Source: Bacteroidaceae bacterium (GTDB lineage Bacteria; Bacteroidota; Bacteroidia; Bacteroidales; Bacteroidaceae). From it: a stretch of DNA of 48,782 nucleotides. The notes beneath the pieces are model-generated. The model made no database searches. It saw nothing but the letters and a program-made list of their open reading frames with translations, and had not been told where the DNA came from. Shown piece by piece: positions 7,522-48,782 of the stretch. Made by a program: the position numbers and the translations under genes. The first letter of the stretch is position 1. Every line of letters begins with the position of its first letter. The stretch lies in the NCBI GenBank assembly GCA_024398595.1, contig JAKSIX010000012.1, forward strand, positions 1 through 48,782, given 5' to 3'.

Positions 7522-8839
7522 CTTTTACCTTGCGTACAAGACGCAGATGGTAGTTCTTGGCCGAGGCTCCTGCATCCAGTATGCTGTTGACTTTGTAACT
7601 GTATGTACGTGATGCGTCATGACACAGATAGCGTACATTGTTGCTCTTTTCGGTCAACACTATTTCATCGCCGCCTGCATCGGTCATAACCTGTGCCAAC
7701 GGAAGGTTATTGTAGGCATTGAACAGGGCGCGTGCTTCATCTTCTGTTGGTATTCTCCAATTTTTCAAGTCAAACTCCTGATATGCGGATGCGGTGCTGC
7801 GGGCCATATCCGGAGTGGCAGCGTGGGTCGATGCTGTCATATCGCCCCAGTCGCTGAGGCTGAGTAGCGTAAGCGTGGCACTGTTCCGGCTGGTGCTGTC
7901 GGTTATGACTACCACGTGACCTTCCCATATTGTAGCAGGGGAGGGTATCTGTGATACCTTATATACCTGCCCATCGTCTTCGTTTGAGCCGGAGTCTATT
8001 ACGGTATTTGTGCCAGGACCAAAGGAGAAATTGAGATTGATGCTCTCATTCCATCCTGTCATGGATATGTTTCCTGTCAAGTTTATGCCTCCATCGGCAA
8101 ATGTACCGCTGATGTTGTACGGTGTGCCGGCATCCAACTGGCCGTTATATGTTACGGAACAGAAGTGGTCTCCGCCATTATCTTTGTACGAGATTGTGAA
8201 TATGGTCTGTTCCGTGTCAGAGGGAAGCAGATATGCGGCGACTGATTGCCACTTGTCACCGTTTTTGCCACACTTGATATGAGCTGTGCCTGATTCCCTG
8301 TTCTCACCTTCCAATGTCATTGACTGGGCTACGCTCTGAACTGATACGCTTACTTCGCTGCATTCCGATGGCAGTCCTGCCAATGCGATGCTGACTGATG
8401 CCATACGTTGTCCCATATGTATGGCGACTGTCGATTTCTCCGAAGAAGGAATGATTTCCGCCAACCCCCATCCCATAGGCTTGTCTGCAATTTTGTCTGC
8501 CGATTTGATGCAGATTACGGATGTTATGTCCGGCGCGTCTTCGATGGTATAGTCGCTTTCCGGCGCGGTAATAGCGACGATGCGGTAACTCTGTCCGCTG
8601 TTAAGTGTCAGGGACATCTGTTCTTCCTGTGAACTGATGGTCTGACTGGCCTTCAATGTGCCGTCCGAATTGAAGGCATAGACCGTTAGCGGATAGTCAA
8701 AAGACGAACCGACAGCACTCCGGGTGAGGATATCCACTTGCGATGTCTTGCCGTTGCCGTACTCTGATTGATTGAACGCTGATTTCTCACACGATGCGGT
8801 GAGAATGGCTGCCATTAGCAGCAGGCTTGTTTTTTTCAT
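7448..8839 (-). CDS. Surface lipoprotein, fimbrillin/Mfa2-like
   Basis: A 463-residue predicted lipoprotein: signal peptide MKKTSLLLMAAILTASC with the lipidated Cys at residue 17. The body is rich in Ser, Thr and beta-strand-like segments and contains an N-terminal fimbrillin-associated style region (YPLTVYAFNSDGTL, YRIVAITAPE) and a C-terminal NWRIPTEDEARALF segment seen in Bacteroidota fimbrillin-like and DUF1566-like domains. Such proteins sit on the outer membrane as pilus components or glycan-binding adhesins. The chain would naturally end near LRLVRKVK, as related proteins do, but the frame runs 24 residues further, antisense to manC. No other fimbrial gene is adjacent. The exact family is uncertain. 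Confidence 0.7.
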   Translation of the reverse strand: MKKTSLLLMAAILTASCEKSAFNQSEYGNGKTSQVDILTRSAVGSSFDYPLTVYAFNSDGTLKASQTISSQEEQMSLTLNSGQSYRIVAITAPESDYTIEDAPDITSVICIKSADKIADKPMGWGLAEIIPSSEKSTVAIHMGQRMASVSIALAGLPSECSEVSVSVQSVAQSMTLEGENRESGTAHIKCGKNGDKWQSVAAYLLPSDTEQTIFTISYKDNGGDHFCSVTYNGQLDAGTPYNISGTFADGGINLTGNISMTGWNESINLNFSFGPGTNTVIDSGSNEDDGQVYKVSQIPSPATIWEGHVVVITDSTSRNSATLTLLSLSDWGDMTASTHAATPDMARSTASAYQEFDLKNWRIPTEDEARALFNAYNNLPLAQVMTDAGGDEIVLTEKSNNVRYLCHDASRTYSYKVNSILDAGASAKNYHLRLVRKVKVILATAIQSAQCPPLSEDVQSAPL

Positions 8840-26872: not shown

Positions 26873-27646
26873 TCAGAGCTGGAAACTTTTCTTCCGCAGT
26901 TCAAAGCTCTGGCTGAGGTATTTGGCTTTCACCGTCGGGTTTGCCGCAAGTTCCTCGGGAGTGCCGTGGAACAGTATGCGCCCCTCGTACAGCAGATAGG
27001 CACGGTCGGTGATGCTCAGTGTCTCGTGTACGTTGTGGTCGGTGATGAGTATTCCGATGTTGTGATATTTGAGTTTCCATACAATCTGCTGTATGTCCTC
27101 TACGGCTATCGGATCGACACCGGCGAACGGTTCGTCCAACATTATGAACTTAGGTTCGATGGCGAGGCAGCGTGCTATCTCAGTACGGCGGCGTTCTCCA
27201 CCTGACAGACGGTCTCCGAGGTTCTTGCGGACTTTCTGCAGACTGAATTCCTCAATCAGACTTTCAAGTTTCTCTTTCTGGTAGGACTGTGGCTTGCCGG
27301 TGAGTTCCAACACTGACGCGATATTGTCCTCAACACTCATTTTGCGGAATACGCTGGCCTCCTGGGCCAGATACCCTATGCCTTTGCGGGCGCGCATATA
27401 GACGGGGTATCCGGTTATGTCTTCGTCATTGAGGAATATGCGGCCTTCGTTGGGCGTAATCAGCCCTGTTGTCATATAGAACGATGTGGTCTTTCCTGCT
27501 CCGTTAGGCCCGAGCAGACCTACAATCTCTCCCTGCCTTACATTGATGGATACGTGGTTGACCACAGTGCGCTTGCCGTATCTCTTTACCAGATTCTCTG
27601 TGTGGAGTACCATCGGTTCCGTGCCTGTCTGAGTGCTATCGTCCAT
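26873..27646 (-). CDS. lptB: LPS export ABC transporter ATPase LptB
   Basis: ATPase that powers lipopolysaccharide extraction from the inner membrane together with LptF, LptG and LptC. The 257-residue protein has Walker A GPNGAGKT (46-53), signature LSGGERRR, Walker [10 protein letters not shown] and the H-loop ITDHNVHET. The close family resemblance to LptB ([15 protein letters not shown] start, [17 protein letters not shown]) makes this safer than a generic ABC ATPase call. The partner genes are not in the window. The end of repeat copy A lies 21 bases upstream of its ATG, in the same relative orientation as copy B before 40765. Confidence 0.92.
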
Positions 27647-27667: not shown

Positions 27668-27890
27668 TTCAAGTTTCGCAGGGTTCCAAATTGCTGTCAT
27701 TCAGGGGTTGTCAAGGCGAAACTTGAATAATAATATCCTTGTATGACCCCCACCTGCATCCTCCCCTCAGGGGAGGACTTGAGTTCCGCTTTGCGTAACT
27801 TAAGTCCCCTATCCTTTTATCACCCCACCTTAATCCTCCACGAGGGAGGAGCCGGGAACGGCTGGAACTCAAGTTTCACATGCGAAGCTT
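27668..27890 (-). repeat. Dispersed intergenic element, copy A (223 bp, with tandem duplication)
   Basis: Matches 40594-40747 in inverted orientation: over the 65 bases from 27711 there are three mismatches and one single-base gap. On the plus strand it starts with TTCAAGTTTCGC (27668-27679), which pairs with GCGAAACTTGAA (27716-27727), a perfect 12-bp inverted repeat, and ends near 27890 in a palindrome-like sequence. Two units with a 76-base period are recognisable by a TATCCTT (27734, 27810), a CCCCACCT box and a CCTCC/GGAGG hairpin. It fills most of the 397-base gap between lptB and tig and encodes no protein. The element family is not recognised. Confidence 0.85.
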
Positions 27891-27941
27891 GCGCGTATTG
27901 ACATTTATGCAGTACAAAAGTACGAAAATATATTGGTGCGC

Positions 27942-27949
27942 TAAATTTG
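27942..27949 (+). promoter_or_regulatory. Possible -7 box for tig
   Basis: TAAATTTG fits TAnnTTTG and lies about 95 bases before the tig ATG in the gap after the repeat. No TTTG box is visible at the right distance upstream, so the call is tentative. The remainder of 27891-28043 shows nothing else recognisable. Confidence 0.35.
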
Positions 27950-28043
27950 GCAGTTAATTATTATTGGAGTAAATTCGCAAATTAATATGGTCACGGGTAT
28001 CCGTGACAGTGAGACAGATTATTCCAATAAACAAATAGCAATA

Positions 28044-29498
28044 ATGAAGGTTTCATTTGAGAACGTGAGCAAGGTACAGGGCCTGCTTACGGTAAGTCTT
28101 GAGAGGGCAGATTATCAGGAGAGTCTTGAGAAGTCACTGAAAGAGTACAGAAAGAAGGCAAATATGCCGGGCTTCCGTCCGGGGATGGTTCCTATGGCAC
28201 TGATACAGAAGATGTACGGCAAGGCCATCAAGGCTGAGGAAATCAATAGGATTCTCCAGGATAAGGTGATGGGATACATTAAGGACAACAATATCGATAT
28301 GTTGGGTGAACCTCTGCCGAACGATGAGAAAGAGAAGGGCCAGAGCATGGATGACGATAACCTGACATTCTACTTCGATATAGCAGTGGCTCCTGAGTTT
28401 GATGCTACTGTATCGAAGGATGATACGCTGACTTATTATCAGATAAAGGTTACGGACGAGATGGTTGACGGTCAGGTTAACAGTTATACCCAGCGTAACG
28501 GCAAGTACGACAAGGTTGATTCGTATCAGGCCAACGATATGATGAAGGGTAAGCTGGCTGAGCTGAATGCCGACGGCAGCGTGAAGGACGGTGGCATTGT
28601 GGTGGAGGATACTGCCCTGATGCCGTCATACTTTGCAGATGACAGTGCAAAGTCCCTGTTTGAGGGTGCAAAGACAGGCACTGAGGTCCGCTTCAATCCG
28701 GCTGAGGCATATAAGAATAATGCGGTTCAACTTTCATCTCTGCTCGCACGCAGCAAGGAGGAGGTTGAGAATGTCAAGTCGGACTTCCTGTTCACGATAT
28801 CCGAGATCACCCGCTATACTCCGGGTGATGTCAATCAGGAATTGTTCGATCAGGTGTTCGGAAAGGATGCCGTGAAGAGTGAGAAGGAGTTCCGTGACAG
28901 GATACGCGAGTCTCTGGAGCGCAGTTTCGTTCCGGACAGCGATTACCGTTTCCTGCTGGATGTACGTAAATATCTGACAGACCGTATTGGCAAACTGGAA
29001 TATCCTGAGGTTCTGCTGAAACGTATTCTCCGGGAGAACAGCAGGGAGGAGAATGAGGACATTGACGCAACATACCAGAGGAGCATTGACGAACTGACCT
29101 GGCATCTGATAAAGGAGAGGCTGGTACGCGACAATGATATCAGGATAGAGGAGGCCGATGTCAAGGAACAGGCACGTGAGGCTACCCGCGCACAGTTTGC
29201 CCAATATGGTATGATGGAGATTCCCGAGGAGCTCCTTAACAACTATGCCGGCGAGATGATGAAGAAACGCGAGACTGTTGACGGTCTTGTGAACCGTGCA
29301 GTGGAGACAAAACTGTCGGCTGTCCTGAAGAAGCAGTTCACACTGAAGAAGAAGAACGTGAGTATGGAGGATTTCAATAAGCTGTTCGAGACGGATGGCA
29401 AGGCTTCCGGGGAGAAGGCTGATGGGAAGAAACCTGCAAAGGCTACAGCAAAGAAAAGCACTGGAAAGGCTACCGTCCAGGATGAGAATGCCAAGTAA
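28044..29498 (+). CDS. tig: Trigger factor
   Basis: Ribosome-associated chaperone that receives nascent chains at the exit tunnel. The N-terminal ribosome-binding domain shows the family signature PGFRPGMVP within the first 50 residues, followed by a FKBP-like peptidyl-prolyl isomerase-type region (about 150-240) and a long helical C-terminal chaperone domain. The 484-residue length from the ATG at 28044 is typical of Bacteroidota, and a Lys/Ala-rich tail ends the protein. The longer reading from 27987 adds residues not seen in the family. It is followed by clpP and clpX, the classic tig-clpP-clpX order. Confidence 0.93.
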   Translation: MKVSFENVSKVQGLLTVSLERADYQESLEKSLKEYRKKANMPGFRPGMVPMALIQKMYGKAIKAEEINRILQDKVMGYIKDNNIDMLGEPLPNDEKEKGQSMDDDNLTFYFDIAVAPEFDATVSKDDTLTYYQIKVTDEMVDGQVNSYTQRNGKYDKVDSYQANDMMKGKLAELNADGSVKDGGIVVEDTALMPSYFADDSAKSLFEGAKTGTEVRFNPAEAYKNNAVQLSSLLARSKEEVENVKSDFLFTISEITRYTPGDVNQELFDQVFGKDAVKSEKEFRDRIRESLERSFVPDSDYRFLLDVRKYLTDRIGKLEYPEVLLKRILRENSREENEDIDATYQRSIDELTWHLIKERLVRDNDIRIEEADVKEQAREATRAQFAQYGMMEIPEELLNNYAGEMMKKRETVDGLVNRAVETKLSAVLKKQFTLKKKNVSMEDFNKLFETDGKASGEKADGKKPAKATAKKSTGKATVQDENAK

Positions 29499-29522
29499 TA
29501 CGTCATTGTGATACAGAAAGAT

Positions 29523-30188
29523 ATGGATGATTTCAGGAAATTCGCCACACGTCATATAGGAATGAGCGGACAGACGCTGGACGATGTCGTCAAGGCACAG
29601 TCCCAGTACCTGAATCCGTATATTCTGGAGGAACGTCAGCTGAATGTGACTCAGATGGATGTGTTTTCCAGACTGATGATGGACCGTATCATCTTCCTTG
29701 GTACGGAAATAAGCGATTATACCGCCAATACGATTCAGGCGCAGCTGCTGTATCTGGATTCGGTGGATTCTTCAAAGGAGATATCCATTTATCTCAATTC
29801 TCCCGGAGGATCGGTGAGTGCCGGACTGGGTATATATGATACGATGCAGTTTGTCAGCAGTCCTGTAGCGACAATATGTACCGGAATGGCCGCAAGTATG
29901 GCGGCTGTGCTGCTGGTTGCCGGCCATGACGGCAAACGCTCGGCCTTGCCTCACAGCAGGGTGATGATACATCAGCCTATGGGTGGTGTGCAGGGGCAGG
30001 CCAGTGATATTGAGATTACAGCGCGGGAGATTCAGAAGCTCAAGAAGGAATTGTATTCGATTATAGCTGATCACTCACATACGCCTTTTGATAAGGTATG
30101 GGCGGACAGCGACCGTGATTATTGGATGACGGCGCAGGAGGCTAAGGAGTATGGTATGATTGATCAGGTGTTGGAAAAACGCAAGTAA
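29523..30188 (+). CDS. clpP: ATP-dependent Clp protease proteolytic subunit
   Basis: Serine peptidase that forms the two-ring tetradecamer used by ClpX. From the ATG at 29523 (221 residues) the catalytic triad is Ser125 (GMAASMAA), His150 (VMIHQP) and Asp199 (DSDRDYW). [12 protein letters not shown] and the QGQASDIEI loop are also present. An upstream GTG at 29508 is possible. The TAA overlaps the clpX ATG by one base (TAATG), giving translational coupling to the unfoldase. Confidence 0.96.
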
Positions 30189-31411
30189 TGTCGAAAATTC
30201 AAAATCATTGCTCGTTCTGCGGACGTGGAGAAAAGGAAGTCGGCTTCCTTCTGGCCGGTGTGGATGGATACATATGCAACGAGTGCGTGGAACAGGCACA
30301 TCAAATTATCTCTGAAGCACGCGGGAGTACTGGAGGCAAGAGCACTTTTCAGATTGATATACCGAAACCTAAGGAAATAAAGGAATATCTGGATGATTAT
30401 GTGATAGGTCAGGATGATGCGAAACGCTATCTTTCCGTGGCTGTATATAATCATTACAAGCGCATTTCATCGTCTGTACAGGATGATGTCAATATAGAAA
30501 AGAGCAATATCATACTGGTTGGGGCTACCGGTACAGGAAAGACACTGTTGGCAAGGACTATAGCTGGTTTTCTCAAGGTCCCATTTGCCATTGTCGATGC
30601 TACTGTGCTGACCGAGGCTGGATATGTCGGCGAGGATATAGAGAGCATATTGTCGCGTTTGCTGCAGGTGGCAGACTATGATGTGGAGGCGGCACAGCGA
30701 GGCATCGTTTTCATAGACGAGATTGACAAGATTGCCAGAAAGAGTGACAATCCGTCTATTACCCGTGATGTGAGCGGTGAGGGTGTACAACAGGGTTTGC
30801 TGAAACTTCTTGAGGGCTCGGTTGTGAATGTGCCTCCCCAGGGTGGCCGCAAGCATCCCGAACAGAAGTTCATACAGGTGGACACAAAAAACATTCTGTT
30901 CATCTGTGGCGGGGCATTCGATGGTATAGAGAGGAAGATTGCACAGAGACTGAATACGCAGGTTGTTGGTTTTGAATCTGTAGAAAAACGCGGAAGAATT
31001 GACAACAACAATCTGATGAAGTATGTCTCTCCGCAGGATTTGAAATCGTTCGGCATGATTCCGGAGATTGTAGGTCGTCTGCCGGTGGTCACATATCTGC
31101 AGCCTCTTGACAGAACTGCGTTGAGGAATATCCTGACTGAACCTAAGAACTCTCTGGTGAGGCAGTATGAGAAACTGTTCGCGATAGACGGAGTGAATCT
31201 GTCTTTCCAGCCGGCCGTGTTGGATTATGTCGTGGACAAGGCCATTGAATTCAAACTTGGTGCACGTGGGCTGCGTTCCATAATGGAGGCGATAATGATG
31301 GATGTGATGTTTGACCTGCCTTCGACGGACAGGAAGAAATGCAATATAACATTGGTATATGCCAAAAAACAGTTGGAAAAGGCTGACGGGGTTAGGCTGT
31401 CGTCCGTTTGA
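30188..31411 (+). CDS. clpX: ATP-dependent Clp protease ATP-binding subunit ClpX
   Basis: AAA+ unfoldase that delivers substrates to ClpP. The N-terminal zinc-binding domain has Cys8, Cys11, Cys30 and Cys33; Walker A GATGTGKT is at residues 112-119, Walker B follows with IDEIDK, and the sensor-2 region GARGLRS is near the C-terminus. The 407-residue length is standard. It ends the tig-clpP-clpX unit; recQ begins 101 bases later with its own possible promoter. Confidence 0.96.
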
Positions 31412-31466
31412 GATAAATTTAACAAAAAAATAAAACATATAGTGGGGGTTATTCCGAGGTTGTTCT

Positions 31467-31474
31467 TAACTTTG
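31467..31474 (+). promoter_or_regulatory. Possible -7 box for recQ
   Basis: TAACTTTG matches TAnnTTTG and lies about 40 bases before the recQ ATG, in the 101-base gap after clpX. The TTTG upstream box is not evident at 19-21 bases, so confidence is limited. Confidence 0.4.
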
Positions 31475-31512
31475 TTTTAAATACCTGATTTTTACGGGGA
31501 GAAGTTTTTTGT

Positions 31513-33693
31513 ATGGCTGACAAGTATAATTTATTTGAAACACTGAAAGTTCATTTCGGCTTTGACAAGTTCAAAGGCGACCAGGAGGCTATAATCAGAA
31601 ACCTGCTTGACGGCAACGACACGTTTGTGCTGATGCCTACAGGCGGGGGAAAGTCTTTGTGCTATCAGCTTCCGGCATTGCTGATGGACGGTACGGCGAT
31701 TGTCATCTCACCATTGATAGCCCTGATGAAGAATCAGGTGGATGCTATGAGAAATATGGGTGAGGAGGAAGGAATAGCGCATTTTATCAATTCATCGCTT
31801 ACAAAGAGTGCAATTGACCAGGTTAAGGATGATGTGCTGTCCGGCAAGACGAAACTGCTGTATGTCGCCCCGGAATCGTTGACGAAAGAGGAAAATGTGG
31901 ATTTTCTCAAGAACGTCAGAATATCATTCTATGCAATAGACGAGGCGCATTGCATATCTGAGTGGGGACATGACTTCCGTCCTGAGTACAGGCGTATCAG
32001 GCCTATTATCAACGAAATTGGTAAGGCTCCTGTGATAGCTCTCACAGCTACGGCTACCAATAAGGTGCGCGATGATATAAAGAAGAACCTGCTCATACAG
32101 GATGCTAGGGACTTCAAGTCCTCGTTCAACCGCCCGAACCTTTACTATGAAGTGAGGCCCAAAACCAAGAATGTCGACAAGGAGGTAATCCGTTTTATCA
32201 AGGCCAATGCCGGAAAGTCAGGCATCATATACTGCCTGTCCCGTAAGAAGGTTGAGGAATTGGCCGAACTGCTGAGAGCCAATGATATCCCGGCTCAGGC
32301 ATATCATGCCGGTATGGAGGCTGCGGCACGTACCAAGACTCAGGATGCGTTCCTGATGGAGAAGATTGACGTTATAGTGGCTACAATAGCGTTCGGTATG
32401 GGAATTGATAAGCCGGATGTCAGATATGTGATACATTACGATATACCGAAAAGTTTAGAAGGCTATTATCAGGAGACCGGACGTGCCGGCCGTGACGGCG
32501 GTGAGGGCCAATGTATTGCATTCTATAACAGCAAGGATGTACAGAAGTTGGAAAAGTTCCTGGACGGCAAACCTATAGCAGAACAGGATATCGGCAAGCA
32601 GCTTCTTCAGGAAACGACGGCGTATTGTGAGTCGTCCGTATGCCGTAGAAAACAGTTGCTGCATTATTTCGGTGAGAATTACGAACCGGACAACTGTGGA
32701 AACTGTGACAATTGTCTTAGTCCTAAGAAACAGGTTGAGGCACAGTCATTGCTTACAACCGTACTTGAGGCTGTCGATGCTCTGAAGGAGAATTTCAAAT
32801 CTGACTATATCGTTGACCTGCTGCTTGGGAAAGAAACTTCACAGATACTGGATCATAAGCATGATGAACTTGAGGTATTCGGCTCAGGCAGTGATGAGGA
32901 TGACAAGACCTGGAATGCCGTGATACGTCAGGCTCTTATTGCGGGGTATCTGACAAAGGATGTTGAGAATTATGGCCTGCTCAAAATATCTGATGATGGC
33001 CGTGATTTCATGGGTAGTCCGAAGTCGTTCATGATTGTTGAGGACAATGATTTTGAAGACGAGGATGCAGAGGAACCTATGCGTGGTGGAGGTACATTCG
33101 CTGTTGACCCGGAGTTGTACTCAATGCTGAAGGATTTGCGCAAGAAGATTTCAAAGCAGATGCAGCTGCCGCCTTACGTGATATTTCAGGATCCTTCACT
33201 GGAAGCGATGGCCACCACCTACCCGATATCGCTGGAGGAACTTCAGAACATTACAGGTGTAGGCGCAGGCAAGGCCAAGCGTTATGGTCAGGAATTCATT
33301 GACCTGATAAAGCGTCACGTGGAGGAGAATGAGATTGAACGTCCGGAGGATATGCGTGTGCGTACCGTGGCTAACAAATCGAAACTGAAGGTGGAGATAA
33401 TACGTCTGATTGACCTGAAAGTCGCTTTGGATGATATAGCTATATCAAAAGGTATGGAGTTTGATGAACTGTTGACGGAAATTGAATCAATTGTCTATTC
33501 GGGTTTCAAACTGAATATAAATTATTTCATTGACGAAACGATAGATGAGGACCGTGCAGAGGACATATACTCATACTTCAAGGAATCTGAAACGGATTCA
33601 CTGGATGATGCCATAGATGAACTGGGTGATGATTATTCGGAGGAGGAGATAAGGCTGATAAGGATAAAGTTCATCTCTGAGATGGGAAATTGA
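31513..33693 (+). CDS. recQ: ATP-dependent DNA helicase RecQ
   Basis: Superfamily 2 3'-5' DNA helicase for recombination and repair. The Walker A region MPTGGGKSLCYQ begins at residue 41, DEAH is at 143-146, the aromatic-rich loop CISEWGHDFRPEY follows, and ETGRAGRDG marks motif VI. Zinc-binding cysteines lie in CESSVCRRKQLL and CGNCDNC, then the winged-helix part, an HRDC domain from about residue 535 (DPELYSMLKDLRKKI), and an acidic C-terminal extension of about 110 residues. The 726-residue length matches the longer Bacteroidota type. guaB follows after 30 bases. Confidence 0.95.
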   Translation: MADKYNLFETLKVHFGFDKFKGDQEAIIRNLLDGNDTFVLMPTGGGKSLCYQLPALLMDGTAIVISPLIALMKNQVDAMRNMGEEEGIAHFINSSLTKSAIDQVKDDVLSGKTKLLYVAPESLTKEENVDFLKNVRISFYAIDEAHCISEWGHDFRPEYRRIRPIINEIGKAPVIALTATATNKVRDDIKKNLLIQDARDFKSSFNRPNLYYEVRPKTKNVDKEVIRFIKANAGKSGIIYCLSRKKVEELAELLRANDIPAQAYHAGMEAAARTKTQDAFLMEKIDVIVATIAFGMGIDKPDVRYVIHYDIPKSLEGYYQETGRAGRDGGEGQCIAFYNSKDVQKLEKFLDGKPIAEQDIGKQLLQETTAYCESSVCRRKQLLHYFGENYEPDNCGNCDNCLSPKKQVEAQSLLTTVLEAVDALKENFKSDYIVDLLLGKETSQILDHKHDELEVFGSGSDEDDKTWNAVIRQALIAGYLTKDVENYGLLKISDDGRDFMGSPKSFMIVEDNDFEDEDAEEPMRGGGTFAVDPELYSMLKDLRKKISKQMQLPPYVIFQDPSLEAMATTYPISLEELQNITGVGAGKAKRYGQEFIDLIKRHVEENEIERPEDMRVRTVANKSKLKVEIIRLIDLKVALDDIAISKGMEFDELLTEIESIVYSGFKLNINYFIDETIDEDRAEDIYSYFKESETDSLDDAIDELGDDYSEEEIRLIRIKFISEMGN

Positions 33694-33723
33694 TTTTTTC
33701 AGAATAAACAAAAATTATATTAT

Positions 33724-35199
33724 ATGTCATTTTTAACTGAACGGGTTGTAATGGAGGGGCTCACATTTGACGATGTGCTGTTGGTGCCGTCATATTCAGA
33801 GGTTCTTCCAAAAGAGGTTTCGCTGGCTACAAGATTTTCAAGAAACATCAGGTTGAATATACCATTCGTGACGGCGGCTATGGATACTGTCACAGAGTCC
33901 CAGATGGCTATTGCAATAGCGCGGGAAGGTGGAATCGGCGTGATTCATAAGAATATGTCCATAGAGGAGCAGGCCAGACAGGTGGCGATTGTAAAGCGTG
34001 CCGAAAATGGTATGATATATGACCCGATTACCATTCACCGTGACAATTCCATTCGTGATGCGTTGGCGTTGATGCGTGAATATCATATCGGAGGCATACC
34101 TGTCGTGGAGTCTGATGGCCGTCTGTGCGGTATCGTCACCAATCGCGACCTGAGGTTCCAGAAGAATTTTGATACTCTGATCGGCGATGTAATGACAAAG
34201 GAAAATCTGGTCACTACGTACCAGCAGATTGATATGGCATCGGCCGCACAGATTCTTCAGGAAAATAAGATAGAGAAACTTCCGGTTGTGGATAATGCCG
34301 GAAAGCTGATAGGACTTATCACGTATAAGGATATTACCAAGGCCAAGGATAAGCCTATGGCGTGCAAGGACAGCAAGGGACGTTTGCGCGTGGCGGGCGG
34401 AGTAGGTGTCACGAAGGACTCTATGCAACGTATTGAGGCGTTGGTGGATGCAGGGGTTGATGCCATTGTCATTGATACGGCCCATGGTCATTCGCGCTCC
34501 GTGTTGGAGAAACTGAAAGAGGCGAAGGCGACATTCAAGGATATAGATGTGGTGGTTGGTAACATTGCCACTGGCGATGCTGCCCGTATGCTGGTTGATG
34601 CGGGAGCTGATGCGGTAAAAGTGGGCATAGGACCGGGTTCTATCTGTACTACACGCATTGTGGCCGGTATAGGTGTTCCGCAGGTGTCAGCAATATATGA
34701 CGTTGCGCAGGCTATCAAGGGCTCCGGCGTTCCTGTGATAGCTGACGGTGGTCTCAGATATTCGGGCGATGTGGTCAAGGCTTTGGCTGCAGGCGGTAAC
34801 AGTGTGATGTTCGGTTCCCTTGTTGCCGGAACTGAGGAATCTCCCGGCGAGACGATAATCTTCAACGGCCGTAAGTTCAAGTCCTATCGTGGAATGGGAT
34901 CGTTGGAGGCTATGGAGAATGGTTCAAAGGACCGCTATTTTCAGGGAGACCAGAAGGATGTCAAGAAACTGGTGCCGGAGGGCATTGCAGCGCGTGTTCC
35001 ATATAAGGGTACTCTGTATGAGGTGGTATATCAGTTGGCTGGCGGTCTGAGGTCGGGAATGGGCTATTGCGGTACACCGGATATTGAATCCCTCCATTCT
35101 GCGAAGTTTGTGAGAATCACCAATGCAGGCATACACGAGAGTCATCCTCACGATGTGGCCATTACCAGTGAAGCTCCGAACTACAGCCGTCCTGAGTAA
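33724..35199 (+). CDS. guaB: Inosine-5'-monophosphate dehydrogenase
   Basis: Oxidises IMP to XMP with NAD in the committed step of guanine nucleotide synthesis. The 491-residue protein has the TIM-barrel start ([19 protein letters not shown]), a CBS pair near residues 95-215, the [15 protein letters not shown] loop with the catalytic cysteine, and the RGMGSLEAM flap. Its chain is complete. It follows recQ closely and is followed by a 32-base gap before the chaperone genes. Confidence 0.96.
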
Positions 35200-35231
35200 A
35201 AAGCTTTTTTATCAACAAATTAACGCGATAT

Positions 35232-36641
35232 ATGAGAAGAGCATTTATTACATGTCTGTTAATGGCGTTTGTCACTGTAGTACTCGCTCAAGACAATCCT
35301 GTGGTTATGAATGTAGCCGGATACGATGTCACACGCAGTGAGTTTGAGTACTTCCTGCAGAAGAATTGTGTTGAGGATACACTGGATTTCAAGACAATTT
35401 CAAAGTATGCTGACCTGTATGTGAACTTCAAGTTGAAAGTCGCGGCGGCTAAGAGCGCGGGTATTGATACTACGGCAGCGTTTATAAACGAGTATAAGTC
35501 CTATAGGGATATTTATGCTGACAAAATATTGGTTGATTCAACCTGGCTTGAAACAAGAGCTAAGGATCTGTATCACGAGAATGAGGAAACCGTAGGTCCG
35601 CAGGGATATTATGATGTGTCAATGATATCACTTCTTCCTGAAGATGAGAAAGAAGAGAGTATTAAGGCAACCGGGATGCACTTATTTGAGAGACGGCAGG
35701 CAATATTGGATGGAGAAGTATCTTTCAGCGAAGTGGCCAAACAGGAGTCATACGATATATTGGCCGAGGACGGCGGCTATATGGGATGGATTACAAGGAC
35801 AGAGCTCCCGGGGGCTGTTGCGGATCAGTTGTTCATGTATGGGCCTGATACATTGACAATGCCAATTTGGACTGAGTACGGATGGCTGATGTTTGAAATA
35901 AGGGGACAAAAAGCTTTTGAACCATATGAAGAACAGCGCAGTCAGATTATGCAGTGGATGCATGACAATGGGTATGACAGATTTGCAAAATATTCTACTG
36001 CAAATAAATATGCGCGGAATCACGGATGGGAGGTGAGAGATGAAGAAGCCTTGTCCCGTTTGGATAGTATTCTGGAGGAAGCATATCCTGATTTCGGCAA
36101 TGTGTCTATGGAATATCATGACGGATTGCTGTTGTTTGAGATAAGCAACAGAAAAATATGGAACAGCATAAGTTCCGATACGACACTGCTGGAGAAGTGG
36201 TTTGATGGGCATCGCAACGACTATGTATTTGATAAACCTGTATTCAAAGGCTGCATTATGATGTGCGCCAGTGAGGATATATACAATGAAGTCGTAAAGG
36301 TAACAGAAGGAGTAAATCTGGAACAGTTGAAATCGAGGATTGATGAATATGACCCTGAACATATCAAGGTACATGCGCAATACGGGCCGTTCCGAAAAGG
36401 AGCCAACTCCTATTGCGATGCGATAGTATTTGGTGAGGGACAGCCTTCGATGTCCGTCTCTTTTCCATATACCGGTTATATTGGAAGGGTGCTTGAGACC
36501 CCGGAGGTATGGACAGATGTGCCTGGAGCTGTAATCAGTGACGCACAGGATGCGGCTGAGAAAGCGTGGGTGAAAGAACTGCGTAAGCAATATGGCTTCA
36601 AGTTGTACAAGAAGGAACTTAAGGTAATGTGTACCGAGTAA
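35232..36641 (+). CDS. Periplasmic parvulin-like peptidyl-prolyl isomerase
   Basis: A 469-residue exported protein with signal peptide MRRAFITCLLMAFVTVVLAQ cleaved near the AQD site. An N-terminal SurA-like helical part (GYDVTRSEFEYFLQKN, YVNFKLKVAAAKSAGID) precedes a parvulin-type segment at about 125-225 (ISLLPEDEKEESI, FSEVAKQESYDILAEDGGYMGW). The rest of the protein is a long C-terminal region with weak SurA resemblance. It is the first of three chaperone-like genes in a row that probably serve outer-membrane protein folding. Its TAA overlaps an ATG of the next gene. Confidence 0.85.
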   Translation: MRRAFITCLLMAFVTVVLAQDNPVVMNVAGYDVTRSEFEYFLQKNCVEDTLDFKTISKYADLYVNFKLKVAAAKSAGIDTTAAFINEYKSYRDIYADKILVDSTWLETRAKDLYHENEETVGPQGYYDVSMISLLPEDEKEESIKATGMHLFERRQAILDGEVSFSEVAKQESYDILAEDGGYMGWITRTELPGAVADQLFMYGPDTLTMPIWTEYGWLMFEIRGQKAFEPYEEQRSQIMQWMHDNGYDRFAKYSTANKYARNHGWEVRDEEALSRLDSILEEAYPDFGNVSMEYHDGLLLFEISNRKIWNSISSDTTLLEKWFDGHRNDYVFDKPVFKGCIMMCASEDIYNEVVKVTEGVNLEQLKSRIDEYDPEHIKVHAQYGPFRKGANSYCDAIVFGEGQPSMSVSFPYTGYIGRVLETPEVWTDVPGAVISDAQDAAEKAWVKELRKQYGFKLYKKELKVMCTE

Positions 36642-37489
36642 TGGTCGTATTTCTGCTCATATCAGTGCTTCTTCTGCAATTTTCCTGTTCTGAAAAATCA
36701 AGTACAGCGGAGCAGGGGCGGACACCTGTCGTGTCTGTGGATGGAAACTATCTGTATTATGATGAATTGGCGAAAGTTATGTCCCCGGACCTTTCTCCAG
36801 AGGATAGTGCCGCTTTTGCAGACAGTTATATAAGAAATTGGATATCAGAACTTCTATTATATCAGAATGCCCGTCGTAACATTCCTGATACGAGGGAGAT
36901 TGATGCATTGGTTGAAAATTACAGACGTGCGCTTATAGTTCATGACTATGAACAGAGGATGATAGAGCAGAAATGCAGGAATGAGGTTAATGAGTCTGAT
37001 ATACAGAAGTTTTATGACGAGAATGGTACTCTGTTCATCATAGAAGAGCCCATAGTCAAGGGTCTGTTCATAAAACTGCCGTTGTCAGTGCCCAATTTGA
37101 ACAAGGTGAGGAAATGGTATGCTGATTTGTCAGAGCAGTCATTGGATGAACTTGAGAAGTACTGCATGGTGAATGCTGTCAAATATTATGTTCTTTATGA
37201 CACGTGGACTTCAATTTCTCAGATAGAGTCTATGATGTCGCTGTCATCCAATTCTTTGAGGGATGAAATTGCCCAAAACAAAAAATTTGAGATGAAGGAT
37301 GATTCGTTCATATATTTTGTAAATGTGACGGATATCAGGAATCGTGGAGAACAGGAACCGTTGGAGAAGGCAAGTGTGGAGATAAGACGTCTGCTGAGGA
37401 ACAGCAGTGAGGTGAATTTCATTGAACGCATGAAGCAGGAACTTTACGAAAGTGCCATTGCCAAAGACAGGATAGTTTTTTTCAATTGA
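36629..37489 (+). CDS. SurA-N-like lipoprotein without visible isomerase domain
   Basis: A protein of about 286 residues with a lipoprotein signal ending at LLLQFSC. The start is either the GTG at 36629 (MYRVMVVF, supplying an arginine in the n-region) or the ATG at 36641 that forms a TAATG junction with the upstream stop. The mature protein shows a SurA N-terminal style helical pattern (VDGNYLYYDELAKVM, SYIRNWISELLLYQNARR, ENYRRALIVHDYEQRM) but no parvulin GG..GW motif, so it looks like a chaperone-only or degenerated isomerase. The next gene follows within 8 bases. The exact role is unknown; an outer-membrane folding function is inferred from context. Confidence 0.7.
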   Translation: MYRVMVVFLLISVLLLQFSCSEKSSTAEQGRTPVVSVDGNYLYYDELAKVMSPDLSPEDSAAFADSYIRNWISELLLYQNARRNIPDTREIDALVENYRRALIVHDYEQRMIEQKCRNEVNESDIQKFYDENGTLFIIEEPIVKGLFIKLPLSVPNLNKVRKWYADLSEQSLDELEKYCMVNAVKYYVLYDTWTSISQIESMMSLSSNSLRDEIAQNKKFEMKDDSFIYFVNVTDIRNRGEQEPLEKASVEIRRLLRNSSEVNFIERMKQELYESAIAKDRIVFFN

Positions 37490-37496
37490 CGTGGGT

Positions 37497-38858
37497 ATGA
37501 AGAGATTGTGGTCAATTGTGATATTGATGGTTATGTCGGCTGTGGCAATAGCCCAGAATGACAATGTGATAGATGAGATCGTATGGCTTGTGGGCGATGA
37601 GGCTATATTCAAGTCGGAGGTCGAGGAACTGCGGATTCAGTCTCAGATGCAGGGTGTGCGTTGGGACGGTGATCCCTATTGTCTGATACCCGAGGAACTT
37701 GCGGTTCAGAAATTGTTTATCAATCAGGCTGTGCTTGACAGTGTGATTGTGACTAACAGTGAGGTGTCAGACCAGATTGAATATACGGTGCAGGCATTGG
37801 CAAATCAATATGGGAGTGTTGAGAAAGTGGAAGAGTACTATGAGATGACAATCAATGATATACGTCTCCGTATGGAGGACAATGTCAGAAACCAGCTGAT
37901 TACCAAAAAGATGCGCAGTAATATTGTCGGTAATGTAAAGGTCTCGCCGGCAGAGGTACGCAAGTACATGAAGGAGATACCGATAGAGGAAATACCGTAT
38001 GTGCCTACTCAGGTGGAGGTTCAGATTATCACACGTGAACCCGTTATTCCGCAGGAGGAAATAGATGCGGTTAAGGCTGAGCTGAGAGATTATACGGAGA
38101 GAATCCAGGAAGGAACTGCCCAGTTCTCGACTTTGGCTCTGCTGTATTCAGAGGATCCGGCATCGGCCCGGCGTGGTGGTGAGCTGGGTTTTGTAGGGCG
38201 GGCAGAGGTTGTTCCTGAATTCGCCACGGTGGCATTCAATCTGACTGATCCCAAAAAGGTATCGAAGATTGTCGAAACGGAGTATGGCTATCATATCATA
38301 CAGCTTATTGAGAAACGTGGGGACAGAATCAATGTGCGGCATATTTTGCGGAAGCCCAGAGTGCCGGATGAAGCTGTCAATACGGCATTGAACACCTTGG
38401 ATTCAATTGCCGACGAGATACGCAATGAAAAGTTCTCGTTTGATGAGGGGGCGCGTTATCTGTCATACGATAAGGATACACGTAACAATAACGGACTGAT
38501 GACGTATCACCCCGAGGATGAGAATACGTCAGTATCGAAGTTCGAAATGCAGCAATTGCCTCAGGAAGTGGCAAGGGTCGTTGACAGGATGCATGTCGGT
38601 GAAATATCAGATCCGTTTACCATGGTTACCAGAGATGGCAAGGTGGTCTGTGCCATTGTAAAGCTGAAGAGCCGTATTTCCGGTCATCAGGCTTCAGTAA
38701 CGGAGGATTTCCCTATACTGCGGGAGATAGTGCTGCAACGTAAGCAGGATGAGACTTTGCAGAAATGGATCCGTGAAAAACAAAAGACCACGTATGTGAA
38801 GATATTTGACGGATGGAATGACTGTGAATTCCGCTATCCGGGTTGGGTGGTTCAGTAA
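37497..38858 (+). CDS. surA: SurA-like periplasmic chaperone / peptidyl-prolyl isomerase
   Basis: A 453-residue exported protein with signal peptide MKRLWSIVILMVMSAVAIAQ. The N-terminal SurA chaperone domain begins at VIDEIVWLVGDEAIFKSEVEE; two parvulin units follow, the first with FSTLALLYSEDPASARRGG, ELGFVGRAEVVPEF and EYGYHIIQLIEKRGD, the second with INVRHIL and a less conserved FSFDEGARYLSYDK. The ATG at 37497 is chosen over a GTG 6 bases upstream. It is the most canonical of the three chaperone genes here and probably escorts outer-membrane beta-barrel proteins. An OstA-like gene follows after 3 bases. Confidence 0.88.
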   Translation: MKRLWSIVILMVMSAVAIAQNDNVIDEIVWLVGDEAIFKSEVEELRIQSQMQGVRWDGDPYCLIPEELAVQKLFINQAVLDSVIVTNSEVSDQIEYTVQALANQYGSVEKVEEYYEMTINDIRLRMEDNVRNQLITKKMRSNIVGNVKVSPAEVRKYMKEIPIEEIPYVPTQVEVQIITREPVIPQEEIDAVKAELRDYTERIQEGTAQFSTLALLYSEDPASARRGGELGFVGRAEVVPEFATVAFNLTDPKKVSKIVETEYGYHIIQLIEKRGDRINVRHILRKPRVPDEAVNTALNTLDSIADEIRNEKFSFDEGARYLSYDKDTRNNNGLMTYHPEDENTSVSKFEMQQLPQEVARVVDRMHVGEISDPFTMVTRDGKVVCAIVKLKSRISGHQASVTEDFPILREIVLQRKQDETLQKWIREKQKTTYVKIFDGWNDCEFRYPGWVVQ

Positions 38859-38861
38859 GTT

Positions 38862-40517
38862 ATGTCACTGAATTTGTCTGAGATAGTAAAACATGGAGCC
38901 GGCATTGTACGTTTGCTGTTTTTGTCGGTTTTTTTGATGACTCCGGCATGTATCCTGTATGCGGAGGACGCAGACTCCACGGAGAATTATGTATATCTGT
39001 TGAATTCAGATGAAATCAGGTACAATCAATATGTGAATTCCGAAGCACAGTTGTTGGTTGGAAATGTTATTTTCCGTCACGACAGTATGTACATGTATTG
39101 CGACAGTGCTCTGTTCTTTCAGAAGAGGAATTCCTTTAATGCTTACAGGAATGTGCGTGCAGAACAGGGTGATACGTTATTCCTGTTCGGGGATTCTCTG
39201 CTGTATGATGGCGCATCCAGAGTGGCACGGGTACGTGGCGGGGTGCGTCTTGAGAACAGGGAGATGATTCTGCTCACTGACAGTTTGAATTATGACCGCA
39301 ACAGCAGTATAGGATATTTTTTCAATGGGGGTACGCTGCTTGATGCCACCAGCACTCTTACATCGGAATACGGTGAATATCGCACTGAATCGGGAGTGAC
39401 GGTGTTCCGTCAGGATGTGGTATTTGAGAATGTGGATTATACGATGTACACCGACACGCTGGTGTATAATGTTGACAGCAGAAAGGCTTTTTTTGTGTGT
39501 CCTACGCGTATTGTAAGTGAGGATAATACGGTTGAGACAGATTCCGGATGGTTTGACACTACGAATAGGAATTCCGTATTGCTGGACCGTTCCCGTATTT
39601 TGTATTCGGATGGGGAACAGCAGATGACGGGTGACAGTATTGTTTATCACAATGCGGAAAACCAGATATATGGTTATGGAAATGTGCTGATTAATGATTT
39701 CTCAGATCATATTGATGTGCAAGGGGATTATGCTTTCTATGACAGGAACAGGGATTCGGCAATAGTGAGCGGTAACGCTCTGGCTATTGAGTATTCTGAG
39801 AAGGATAGTCTTTTCCTGCATGCTGATACTTTCAAACTGAGGAGTGTGCAGAAGGATTCTACCCTGAATAGAATTATGATGGCTTATAATAAAGTCAAGG
39901 CATTCAGGATTGACTTGCAGATGATATGTGACTCAATGGAATTCCAGTCGGTTGATTCGTGCCTGACTTTATATGGCGATCCTATTGTATGGTCTCAGAG
40001 CCAACAGATATTGGGCGAGGTCATCAAGGCTTATATGAACGACAGTACGATTGAATGGGCTCACGTGATAGGTCAGGCTCTGTCTGTAGAACAGGTGGCT
40101 ATGGATCAGTTCAATCAGATTTCAGGCCGTGAGATTAAGGCTTTTTTCAAAAATGGGGATATAGACAGGGCAGAAGTTGACGGTAATGTTAATGTCAGGT
40201 ATTATCCGTATGATTCCGATAGTATCGTCATCGGATTGAACGAGACAGCGGCATCACATATGAATGCTGCATTCAAGGCACGAAAGGTAGATAAGATAGT
40301 TGTGACAGGCAGTTCGGAGGGCACGCTTTATCCCATGGATCAGATACCTCCCGGAAAGAGGGAACTTGTCAATTTTGACTGGTTCGCAGATCTGCGGCCA
40401 CGTGACCGTGAGGATGTATTCCACTGGCGTGGCAAGAAGGCTGAGGATAAACTGAGGGAGAATGTTTTTTCCAGAGATGTCCCTTTGCCAACTCTGCCGG
40501 TTATAAAAGGAAAATAA
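38862..40517 (+). CDS. OstA/LptA-like periplasmic protein
   Basis: A 551-residue protein with a hydrophobic export signal (RLLFLSVFLMTPACILYAE). The body is made of repeated beta-strand pairs typical of the OstA/LptA/LptD-N family: NEIRYNQYV-like segments, YMYCDSALFF, GDSLLYDGASRVARVRGGVRLENREMILLTDSLNYDR, and YDRNRDSAIVSGNAL. In this family such strands form the jelly-roll bridge that passes LPS across the periplasm. Bacteroidota commonly carry such a long OstA-like protein after SurA-like genes. It ends the chaperone block; an inverted repeat and repeat copy B follow in the 247-base gap. Confidence 0.82.
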   Translation: MSLNLSEIVKHGAGIVRLLFLSVFLMTPACILYAEDADSTENYVYLLNSDEIRYNQYVNSEAQLLVGNVIFRHDSMYMYCDSALFFQKRNSFNAYRNVRAEQGDTLFLFGDSLLYDGASRVARVRGGVRLENREMILLTDSLNYDRNSSIGYFFNGGTLLDATSTLTSEYGEYRTESGVTVFRQDVVFENVDYTMYTDTLVYNVDSRKAFFVCPTRIVSEDNTVETDSGWFDTTNRNSVLLDRSRILYSDGEQQMTGDSIVYHNAENQIYGYGNVLINDFSDHIDVQGDYAFYDRNRDSAIVSGNALAIEYSEKDSLFLHADTFKLRSVQKDSTLNRIMMAYNKVKAFRIDLQMICDSMEFQSVDSCLTLYGDPIVWSQSQQILGEVIKAYMNDSTIEWAHVIGQALSVEQVAMDQFNQISGREIKAFFKNGDIDRAEVDGNVNVRYYPYDSDSIVIGLNETAASHMNAAFKARKVDKIVVTGSSEGTLYPMDQIPPGKRELVNFDWFADLRPRDREDVFHWRGKKAEDKLRENVFSRDVPLPTLPVIKGK

Positions 40518-40523
40518 TAACTG

Positions 40524-40595
40524 GAATCTGTATTGAAATCCATCTCGAAAATCCTTCATGAAATTTTTAATCGGACATTTCAAAACAGATTCTAA
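40524..40595. repeat. Inverted repeat with GAATCTGTNTTGAAAT arms
   Basis: GAATCTGTATTGAAAT (40524-40539) and ATTTCAAAACAGATTC (40577-40592) are inverted copies with one mismatch around a 37-base centre that contains the palindrome TTCATGAA. The right arm, extended to 40595, recurs with one mismatch at 23808-23826. It lies right after the OstA-like stop and abuts copy B of the larger element. It could be a small mobile-element remnant or a 3'-end structure. Confidence 0.5.
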
Positions 40596-40747
40596 GGTTT
40601 CGCATGCGAAACTTTAGTTCCAGCCGTTCTCGGCTGGGTTCTCCTCTGAGGGGAGGATGTAGGTGGGGGCATACAAGGATATTATTATTCAAGTTTCACC
40701 TTGACAGCCTCTGAATGACAGCAATTTTGAATCCAGCGAAACTTGAA
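40594..40747 (+). repeat. Dispersed intergenic element, copy B (154 bp)
   Basis: The inverted-orientation counterpart of 27668-27890. It begins with a 16-bp perfect palindrome GTTTCGCATGCGAAAC, then an AGCCG/CGGCT hairpin, a CTCCTCTGAGGGGAG hairpin, an AGGTGGGG box, AAGGATATTATTATTC, and a terminal stem between TTCAAGTTTCAC (40688-40699) and GCGAAACTTGAA (40736-40747). It lacks the internal 76-base duplication of copy A. The end lies 17 bases before the ATG at 40765. Confidence 0.85.
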
Positions 40748-48728: not shown

Positions 48729-48782
48729 GGGCGTTTAGCTCAGCTGGTTTAGAGCATCTGCCTTACAAGCAGAGGGTCGGCG
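48729..48782 (+). tRNA. tRNA-Val(TAC), 3'-truncated by window end
   Basis: The acceptor strand starts GGGCGTT, the D arm is GCTC...GAGC, and the anticodon stem TCTGC/GCAGA encloses the loop CTTACAA with anticodon TAC (48764-48766), which reads valine codons. The T arm and 3' end fall outside the window. It follows a consensus promoter at the expected distance. Confidence 0.9.

What the first reader, a model, noticed from the sequence alone, without database searches (positions are those of the whole stretch)
27668..40747. A dispersed intergenic element present twice in inverted orientation, 13 kb apart
27668-27890 and 40594-40747 share long, nearly identical stretches when one is reverse-complemented: in the 65 bases from 27711 there are three mismatches and one single-base gap. 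Both carry hairpins, an AGGTGGGG box and terminal TTCAAGTTTCRC / GCGAAACTTGAA arms. No coding sequence lies in them. This conservation in spacers where nothing else is conserved points to a mobile or homogenised non-coding element, such as a MITE- or REP-like family.
Basis: partly seen in the sequence, partly recalled or inferred. Interest (0 to 1): 0.7.

Follow-up and report, generated by a model that had tools for sequence, protein, structure and literature searches.

The report
Non-coding miniature transposon of IS4 type
The two look-alike spacers are copies of a small non-coding jumping element, with about 25 copies in this uncultured bacterium and patchy presence in its relatives, whose ends match those of a complete transposon in sister species that probably supplied the enzyme to move it; it is an ordinary kind of mobile element, in a family we did not find described.

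Summary
Copy B (40590-40747) and composite copy A (27668-27891) belong to a ~157-bp family with 25 places in the 2.21-Mb genome; of 24 sampled congeners two have it. Full-length copies have inverted ends (ACT[C/G]AAGTTTCGC / GCGAAACTTGAA) and 6-9 bp target duplications: 9 of 16 score well against 7 of 240 mispaired flanks. At B, 27 measured relatives have spacers of -2 to 29 nt where the window has about 250. The probable mover is an IS4-family insertion sequence, intact in two congeners: 1587 bp, 483-aa transposase, right end matching in 18 of 20 bases. A third congener carries a 141-bp internal deletion of that IS (138 of 141 identical). The window's genome shows no such transposase, so its copies look stranded. 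No partner for a REP/RAYT or DUF559 reading was found. New member of a known kind. Less ordinary: local palindromes show compensatory changes, and right ends favour start codons.

The parts
40590..40747 (+). Copy B: near full-length element (158 bp as aligned), left end degraded beside a neighbouring repeat
40592..40617 (+). Copy B left palindrome CTAAGGTTTCGCATGCGAAACTTTAG (left terminal repeat plus its internal inverted copy)
40620..40637 (+). Copy B second hairpin CCAGCCGTTCTCGGCTGG
40639..40657 (+). Copy B third hairpin TTCTCCTCTGAGGGGAGGA, followed by TGTAGGTGGGGG
40688..40747 (+). Copy B right module: TTCAAGTTTCAC .. GCGAAACTTGAA hairpin; its last bases are the right terminal repeat
27668..27778 (-). 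Copy A, first part: right three quarters of an element, right end (27668) facing the ATG at 27646 of the minus-strand gene
27778..27805 (-). Copy A, junction holding a diverged left-end-like palindrome
27810..27891 (-). Copy A, second part: left half of another, more diverged element (82%)

Best explanation
[quoted passage not shown] An IS4-family transposase encoded elsewhere recognises the terminal repeat (core AAGTTTCGCA) at both ends, excises or copies the element, and inserts it at AT-rich targets, mostly starting TA, duplicating 6-9 bp. Shown: many copies, ends shared with a complete IS in congeners, target duplications, spacers without the element in relatives, and a 141-bp internal-deletion derivative of that IS. 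Inferred: that this transposase, or a close relative, moved the element. No copy of the enzyme was found in the window's genome, so its copies are probably immobile today. The interior (two GC-rich hairpins and the AGGTGGGG box) does not match the IS: only the ends do, so this is a MITE of the ends-only kind.
For: 25 places in G000. 3 of 41 sampled genomes positive, all in the genus: own 29 matches (self-palindromic ones included), G014 15 places, G010 one copy in two matches. Target duplications: TAATTTA, TAAAATA, TAAATA, TAAGAT, TAATCA exact and seven more with one mismatch (one of them over 5 bases only); 9 of 16 copies score >= 4 against 7 of 240 mispaired flanks, 0 of 20000 permutations reach the observed total. 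Boundaries were chosen after seeing the flanks; allowing 49 boundary choices, 0 of 5000 permutations reach the observed best, and the boundary is uncertain by one base. Spacers at site B: 27 relatives measured (of 29 loci given), -2 to 29 nt, window 250 by the same estimate, 247 between ORFs. Site C12: 184 nt in G000, 24 in the closest relative G323; 26 relatives measured of 29 loci, 1 to 129 nt. Autonomous IS: intact in G010 and G011 (94% identical proteins), 1587 bp, ends TTTAAGTTTCGCAAGTT / AACTTGCGAAACTTGAA; MITE right end shares 18 of the first 20 bases with the IS right end. NF049925 IS4 family 392.8 bits, cut-off 250; Y(2)R(3)E(6)K present. G325 carries a 141-bp element, 138 of 141 bases identical to the first 62 and last 79 bases of the G010 IS. 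The motif AAGTTTCGCAAG also bounds related transposases on plasmids of Bacteroides salyersiae (49% identity over 84% of the query) and Segatella hominis (42% over 97%). In G010 the IS and the MITE copy lie 3.3 kb apart.
Against: No IS4_4 transposase was found in the window's genome by protein or profile. G014, with 15 places, has only fragments of this IS (one with a stop inside) besides weak matches to other transposases. Intact IS and MITE occur together only in G010, which has one MITE copy; G011, with an intact IS, showed no MITE. The MITE left end matches the IS left end in 11 of 14 bases. 7 of 16 full copies lack a convincing duplication, and B itself was not scorable. The intact IS in G010 shows no clear target duplication (my reading). 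Sites without the element are shown by spacer length in diverged relatives (closest about 85% identical), not by base-perfect empty sites in sister strains; at site A spacer lengths run from 101 to 646 nt in 28 relatives, so A is weak there.
Confidence: 0.9

Rival explanations
1. A REP/BIME-like palindromic repeat spread by a RAYT (Y1 tyrosine) transposase or a DUF559-type endonuclease.
For: Palindromic, extragenic, with compensatory changes as reported for REPIN hairpins (passages of PMC3116915); paired inverted palindromes resemble a REPIN layout.
Against: No PF01797 (Y1_Tnp) and no PF04480 (DUF559) match in the genome. Target duplications and ends shared with a DDE-type IS4 element point to another kind of transposase.
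Confidence: 0.03
2. A conserved structured 5' leader or regulatory RNA, kept because it controls the downstream genes, rather than a mobile element.
For: Right ends lie within 40 nt of an ATG of a long ORF in 15 of 28 copies against 4 of 28 left ends; strong predicted folds of one copy, z -5.4 and -7.3 for the two strands; compensatory changes in local hairpins.
Against: Relatives' copies of the same genes lack it at sites B and C12; patchy distribution; target duplications. G-U and A-C departures are 10 and 7 cells, so no sign of selection on one RNA strand (small numbers). The start-codon bias could follow from a TAA-type target in short spacers.
Confidence: 0.05
3. The element is a MITE, but of another, unseen IS; the IS4 element shares its end sequence by chance or convergence.
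For: Only about the terminal 14-20 bases are alike, the interior is unrelated, and the left end matches in 11 of 14 bases. The window's genome lacks the IS4 enzyme.
Against: 18 of 20 bases shared at the right end, same genus, G010 has both; the end motif is shared by related transposases of 42-49% identity.
Confidence: 0.07

Closest known systems
IS4 family insertion sequences, NCBIfam NF049925 (transpos_IS4_4) clade
   Same: The presumed partner has a DDE transposase over this profile's cut-off, the YREK signature (that it marks IS4 is recalled) and short inverted ends.
   Different: The window element has no transposase and shares only the ends; no member was found in the window's genome. 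A named relative, annotated ISBf8 family, is about 31% identical in protein to the partner.
MITEs of Porphyromonas gingivalis (BrickBuilt, MITE239, MITE464/MITEPgRS, MITE700)
   Same: Bacteroidales MITEs matching the ends of resident insertion sequences; 19 BrickBuilt copies in one strain (passages of PMC4596501), reported as strictly intergenic (passage of PMC10969869).
   Different: Those match IS5-family ends (GAGACC.. or ACGTCAG..) and their sequences differ; the paper names IS4 only in a reference title.
REPINs / REP-RAYT system
   Same: Paired palindromes with compensatory changes in hairpin arms (passages of PMC3116915).
   Different: No RAYT found in this genome; target duplications present here.
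Correia, BOX, RUP, ERIC elements
   Same: Short, non-coding mobile repeats, Correia mostly just upstream of genes (passages of PMC10969869; other details recalled).
   Different: Other hosts and parent transposases; sequences were not compared here (difference recalled).

Membership tests
MITE | Short (50-1000 bp), no coding capacity | tested here: met
   157 bp in the best copy; both window copies lie between large ORFs
MITE | Multiple dispersed copies in a genome | tested here: met
   25 places in G000, 15 in G014
MITE | Terminal inverted repeats | tested here: met
   left ACT[C/G]AAGTTTCGC, right GCGAAACTTGAA
MITE | Target-site duplication | tested here: met
   9 of 16 against 7 of 240 mispaired; 0 of 20000 permutations; holds over 49 boundary choices
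MITE | Sites without the element in relatives | tested here: met
   site B, 27 measured relatives; site C12, 26; site A inconclusive
MITE | Ends shared with an autonomous transposon in the same or a related genome | tested here: met
   IS in G010 and G011; not found in the window's own genome
MITE | Movement in trans by that transposase | not testable with these tools
   needs a bench assay
IS4-family derived element | Partner transposase over the IS4 profile cut-off with Y(2)R(3)E(6)K | tested here: met
   NF049925 392.8 bits against 250; YAQRWSLEVVFKDSK at residue 361
IS4-family derived element | Internal sequence derived from the IS | tested here: not met
   only the ends match; ends-only kind, unlike the 141-bp derivative in G325
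REP / RAYT (TnpA-REP) | Y1-type transposase in the genome | tested here: not met
   PF01797: 0 matches in G000
REP / RAYT (TnpA-REP) | No target duplication (recalled) | tested here: not met
   duplications present
Rfam structured RNA | Match to a curated family | tested here: not met
   only a tRNA at the window's end reaches a gathering score

The most novel reading that the evidence does not exclude
The element's local palindromes, and not its end-to-end stem, are actively kept as hairpins (paired changes in several copies within one genome), and its right hairpin sits mostly just upstream of start codons: after the transposase was lost it may have been taken up as a portable DNA- or RNA-hairpin that shapes the start of translation or transcription of many unrelated genes in this lineage.
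Probability: 0.1. Interest if true: 0.55.

Novelty: new member of a known kind. Interest (0 to 1): 0.33.

Why it matters
It gives an uncultured Bacteroidales genus a defined MITE family with a probable parent insertion sequence and a readable range of states: intact IS with one MITE copy (G010), many copies with a decayed IS (G014), many copies with no IS found (the window's genome). The paired changes among copies within one genome make it possible to ask whether palindromes in mobile DNA are repaired by hairpin-templated correction or kept by selection. For annotation, it explains a set of spacers in front of genes that might otherwise be taken for regulatory leaders.

Tried and rejected
RAYT and DUF559 partners: no match in the genome. 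Plasmid and phage collections with the element (blastn, E <= 0.01): no match. Candidate autonomous element in G000 at C5 23.3-26.2 kb, suggested by two end-like motifs 2.9 kb apart: both lie inside long ORFs, rejected. Pattern hits in named genomes: of 17 stretches, 7 belong to G014's record, one to G010's and one (L144) to a further MAG with the same element; the other 8, printed, have similar ends but unrelated interiors, so I count them as end-sharing palindromes, not as members. Of 295 genomes of the order, 13 hold the exact 14-mer end; several of those hits look coding and like chance to my eye (no gene calls were run there). End-to-end stem as the conserved structure: no covariation above shuffles. 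Strand-specific RNA selection: G-U 10, A-C 7, other 1 among departing cells, no sign of it. Core pattern in viral contigs: 0 matches; the 16-base end in viral contigs gave 34 stretches, not followed. No solved structure related to the transposase by sequence.

Dropped before counts and limits: copy B (left end not recognisable) and G014 C6 (contig end) were left out, 16 of 18 used. In one search the two outermost pairs of the left hairpin were left out because they overlap the duplication; one search keeps them. Spacer lengths use the loci returned (at most 30 a call) in which both neighbouring genes were found: 27 of 29 at B, 28 of 29 at A, 26 of 29 at C12. score only the first 11-20 candidates in some genomes. 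One search uses copies in loci L090-L129 and the window, with a simple ORF rule; its 40-nt limit was set. Distribution counts come from draft, mostly incomplete genomes.
Full report
OBSERVATION. The inverted pair is real. BLAST of A against the window finds B at 91% over 111 bases (E 1.3e-39), with a second block at 80% over 83 bases, and the repeat finder gives the same arms. Both copies lie between the large ORFs. A is composite: 27668-27778 is the right three quarters of one element, 27810-27891 the left half of a second, more diverged one, with a further palindrome between. No Rfam family other than a tRNA at the window's end reaches its threshold.

FAMILY. Searching the window's own genome (2.21 Mb, 95 contigs, 98.4% complete) with B gives 25 places at E <= 0.004, after one self-palindromic match of B is dropped and the two blocks of A are merged. 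Contig ends C41 and C58 may be two halves of one copy. Six copies in this genome are near full length, counting B. Of 41 genomes searched with a full copy, 3 match: the own genome (29 matches), G014 (15 places) and G010 (one copy), both of the same genus; the other 22 congeners and 16 more distant genomes do not. Genus-wide searches with flanking DNA (37 genomes) add one core fragment without ends in G324.

ANATOMY. Eighteen full-length copies (6 in G000, 11 in G014, 1 in G010) align over 163 columns with 89% mean column identity. From left to right: a 30-base palindrome starting, after one flank-like base, ACT[C/G]AAGTTTCGC in most copies; hairpin CCAGCCG..CGGCTGG; hairpin TCCTCCCC..GGGGAGGA; TGTAGGTGGGGGTCA; an AT-rich link; and a right module TTCAAGTTTCGC..GCGAAACTTGAA. 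Partial copies hold only the left or only the right part. Four very short palindromes made of little more than the two ends also occur.

INSERTION. With the left boundary before ACT and the right boundary after GAA, flanks of the same copy agree: TAATTTA, TAAAATA, TAAATA, TAAGAT and TAATCA exactly, and seven others with one mismatch, one of these over 5 bases only. 9 of 16 scored copies reach the threshold against 7 of 240 mispaired combinations, and none of 20000 permutations reaches the observed total. I chose the boundaries after seeing the flanks; with 49 boundary choices allowed, none of 5000 permutations reaches the observed best, and the boundary is uncertain by one base. Seven of the 16 do not reach the threshold, and B itself was not scorable. 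At site B, 27 measured relatives (of 29 loci) have spacers of -2 to 29 nt where the window has 250 by the same estimate. At the C12 site G000 has 184 nt, its closest relative 24, and 26 measured relatives 1 to 129. At site A the closest relative has 200 nt against 397, but spacers there run from 101 to 646 nt in 28 relatives, so A by itself proves little.

PARTNER. The 14-base end occurs exactly in 13 of 295 genomes of the order. One hit lies directly after the stop codon of a broken DDE transposase in G259. A homologue in G010 is intact: 483 aa in a 1587-bp insertion sequence with ends TTTAAGTTTCGCAAGTT and AACTTGCGAAACTTGAA, 3.3 kb from that genome's MITE copy. It scores 392.8 bits against the IS4 profile NF049925 (cut-off 250) and carries the YREK signature (that YREK marks IS4 is recalled). 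Of 37 genomes of the genus, 7 have a match to the protein and two have it intact, G010 and G011. G014 has only fragments of it, and the window's genome shows none, by protein or by profile. G011 has the IS but no MITE match. G325 has a 141-bp derivative, 138 of 141 bases identical to the first 62 and last 79 bases of the IS, which shows that this IS gives rise to miniature forms. Related transposases on plasmids of Bacteroides salyersiae and Segatella hominis (49% and 42% identical) are bounded by the same AAGTTTCGCAAG motif.

MECHANISM. The best reading is an ends-only MITE moved in trans by this IS4 transposase, with insertion preferring AT-rich targets that mostly begin TA, often TAA. Copy number, ends, duplications, spacers without the element and the IS derivative are shown; trans-mobilisation is inferred. 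Because the enzyme was not found in the window's genome, its copies are probably stranded; a draft genome can, however, lose multi-copy insertion sequences at contig breaks.

LESS ORDINARY FEATURES. First, local hairpins covary: 6 pairs and 14 cells with changes on both sides, 0 of 500 shuffles as high, at most 1 pair in the slid controls; the end-to-end stem shows no covariation. In the full copies, 5 of 6 in G000 read CTCAAG..CTTGAG, and the G014 and G010 copies have G and C at that pair; single copies carry their own paired changes. Cells count sequences, not events, and shuffles do not correct for relatedness. Departures from pairing are 10 G-U, 7 A-C and 1 other, so no sign that one RNA strand is selected; hairpin-templated repair of DNA palindromes is the simpler cause (that mechanism is recalled). 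Second, 15 of 28 right ends lie within 40 nt of an ATG opening a long ORF against 4 of 28 left ends (Fisher p 0.004; simple ORF rule, limit set, copies not fully independent). A TAA-type target in short spacers or stop codons could cause this without any function.

NOVELTY. Bacteroidales MITEs are known in Porphyromonas gingivalis, matching IS5-family ends (passages of PMC4596501). A 2024 review of prokaryotic MITEs has no occurrence of the terms IS4 or Bacteroid- (term counts and passages of PMC10969869). Five paper searches showed no description of this family or its end sequence in the listings I saw: 15 of 155, 10 of 10, 15 of 59, 20 of 50 and 0 of 0 papers, by title and start of abstract. 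The library lacks most subscription journals. I therefore file it as a new member of a known kind.

Noticed in passing
window 40523-40597: A 75-bp copy of a second dispersed repeat with ends GAATCTGTNTTGAAATG / CATTTCAAAACAGATTC directly abuts copy B; longer copies, about 165-240 bp between the matched ends, occur in this genome (L107, L099) and in G001, G017, G323 and G324 (further genus-wide matches). It looks like another MITE family and may explain the odd left end of B.
   Followed up: partly
L170, L178, L182, L187, L188 (G135) and L169, L177, L183, L186 (G317): In two genomes of another Bacteroidales family the same end CTTGCGAAACTTGA bounds repeats whose interior is rich in TTTAACTCC / GGAGTTAAAG-like tracts. 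Neither genome has a strong IS4_4 match: none in G135, one weak in G317. Their mover is unknown.
   Followed up: partly
L137, L139, L140, L145: Pricia antarctica, Bacteroides fluxus, B. xylanisolvens and a Prevotella MAG carry palindromes of about 50-60 bp with the same TCAAGTTTCGC ends but unrelated interiors.
   Followed up: no
L156 about 8284-8310; L155 about 2465; L098 about 7911; L149 about 8641: Very short palindromes made of little more than two end repeats back to back; the one in L156 has flanks TAAACA / TAAATA, as if a unit of about 27 bp had inserted.
   Followed up: no
L340 571-645 (G324 C138): The GC-rich core (hairpins two and three and a GTAGGAGGGGG box) occurs without the transposon ends, so the core may be an older repeat captured between IS4 ends.
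   Followed up: no
L225 2665-3276 (Segatella hominis plasmid NZ_CP137560.1): A DUF559 domain gene lies directly after the IS4-type element with the same end motif.
   Followed up: no
window 48729-48782: A tRNA gene cut by the window's end.
   Followed up: no
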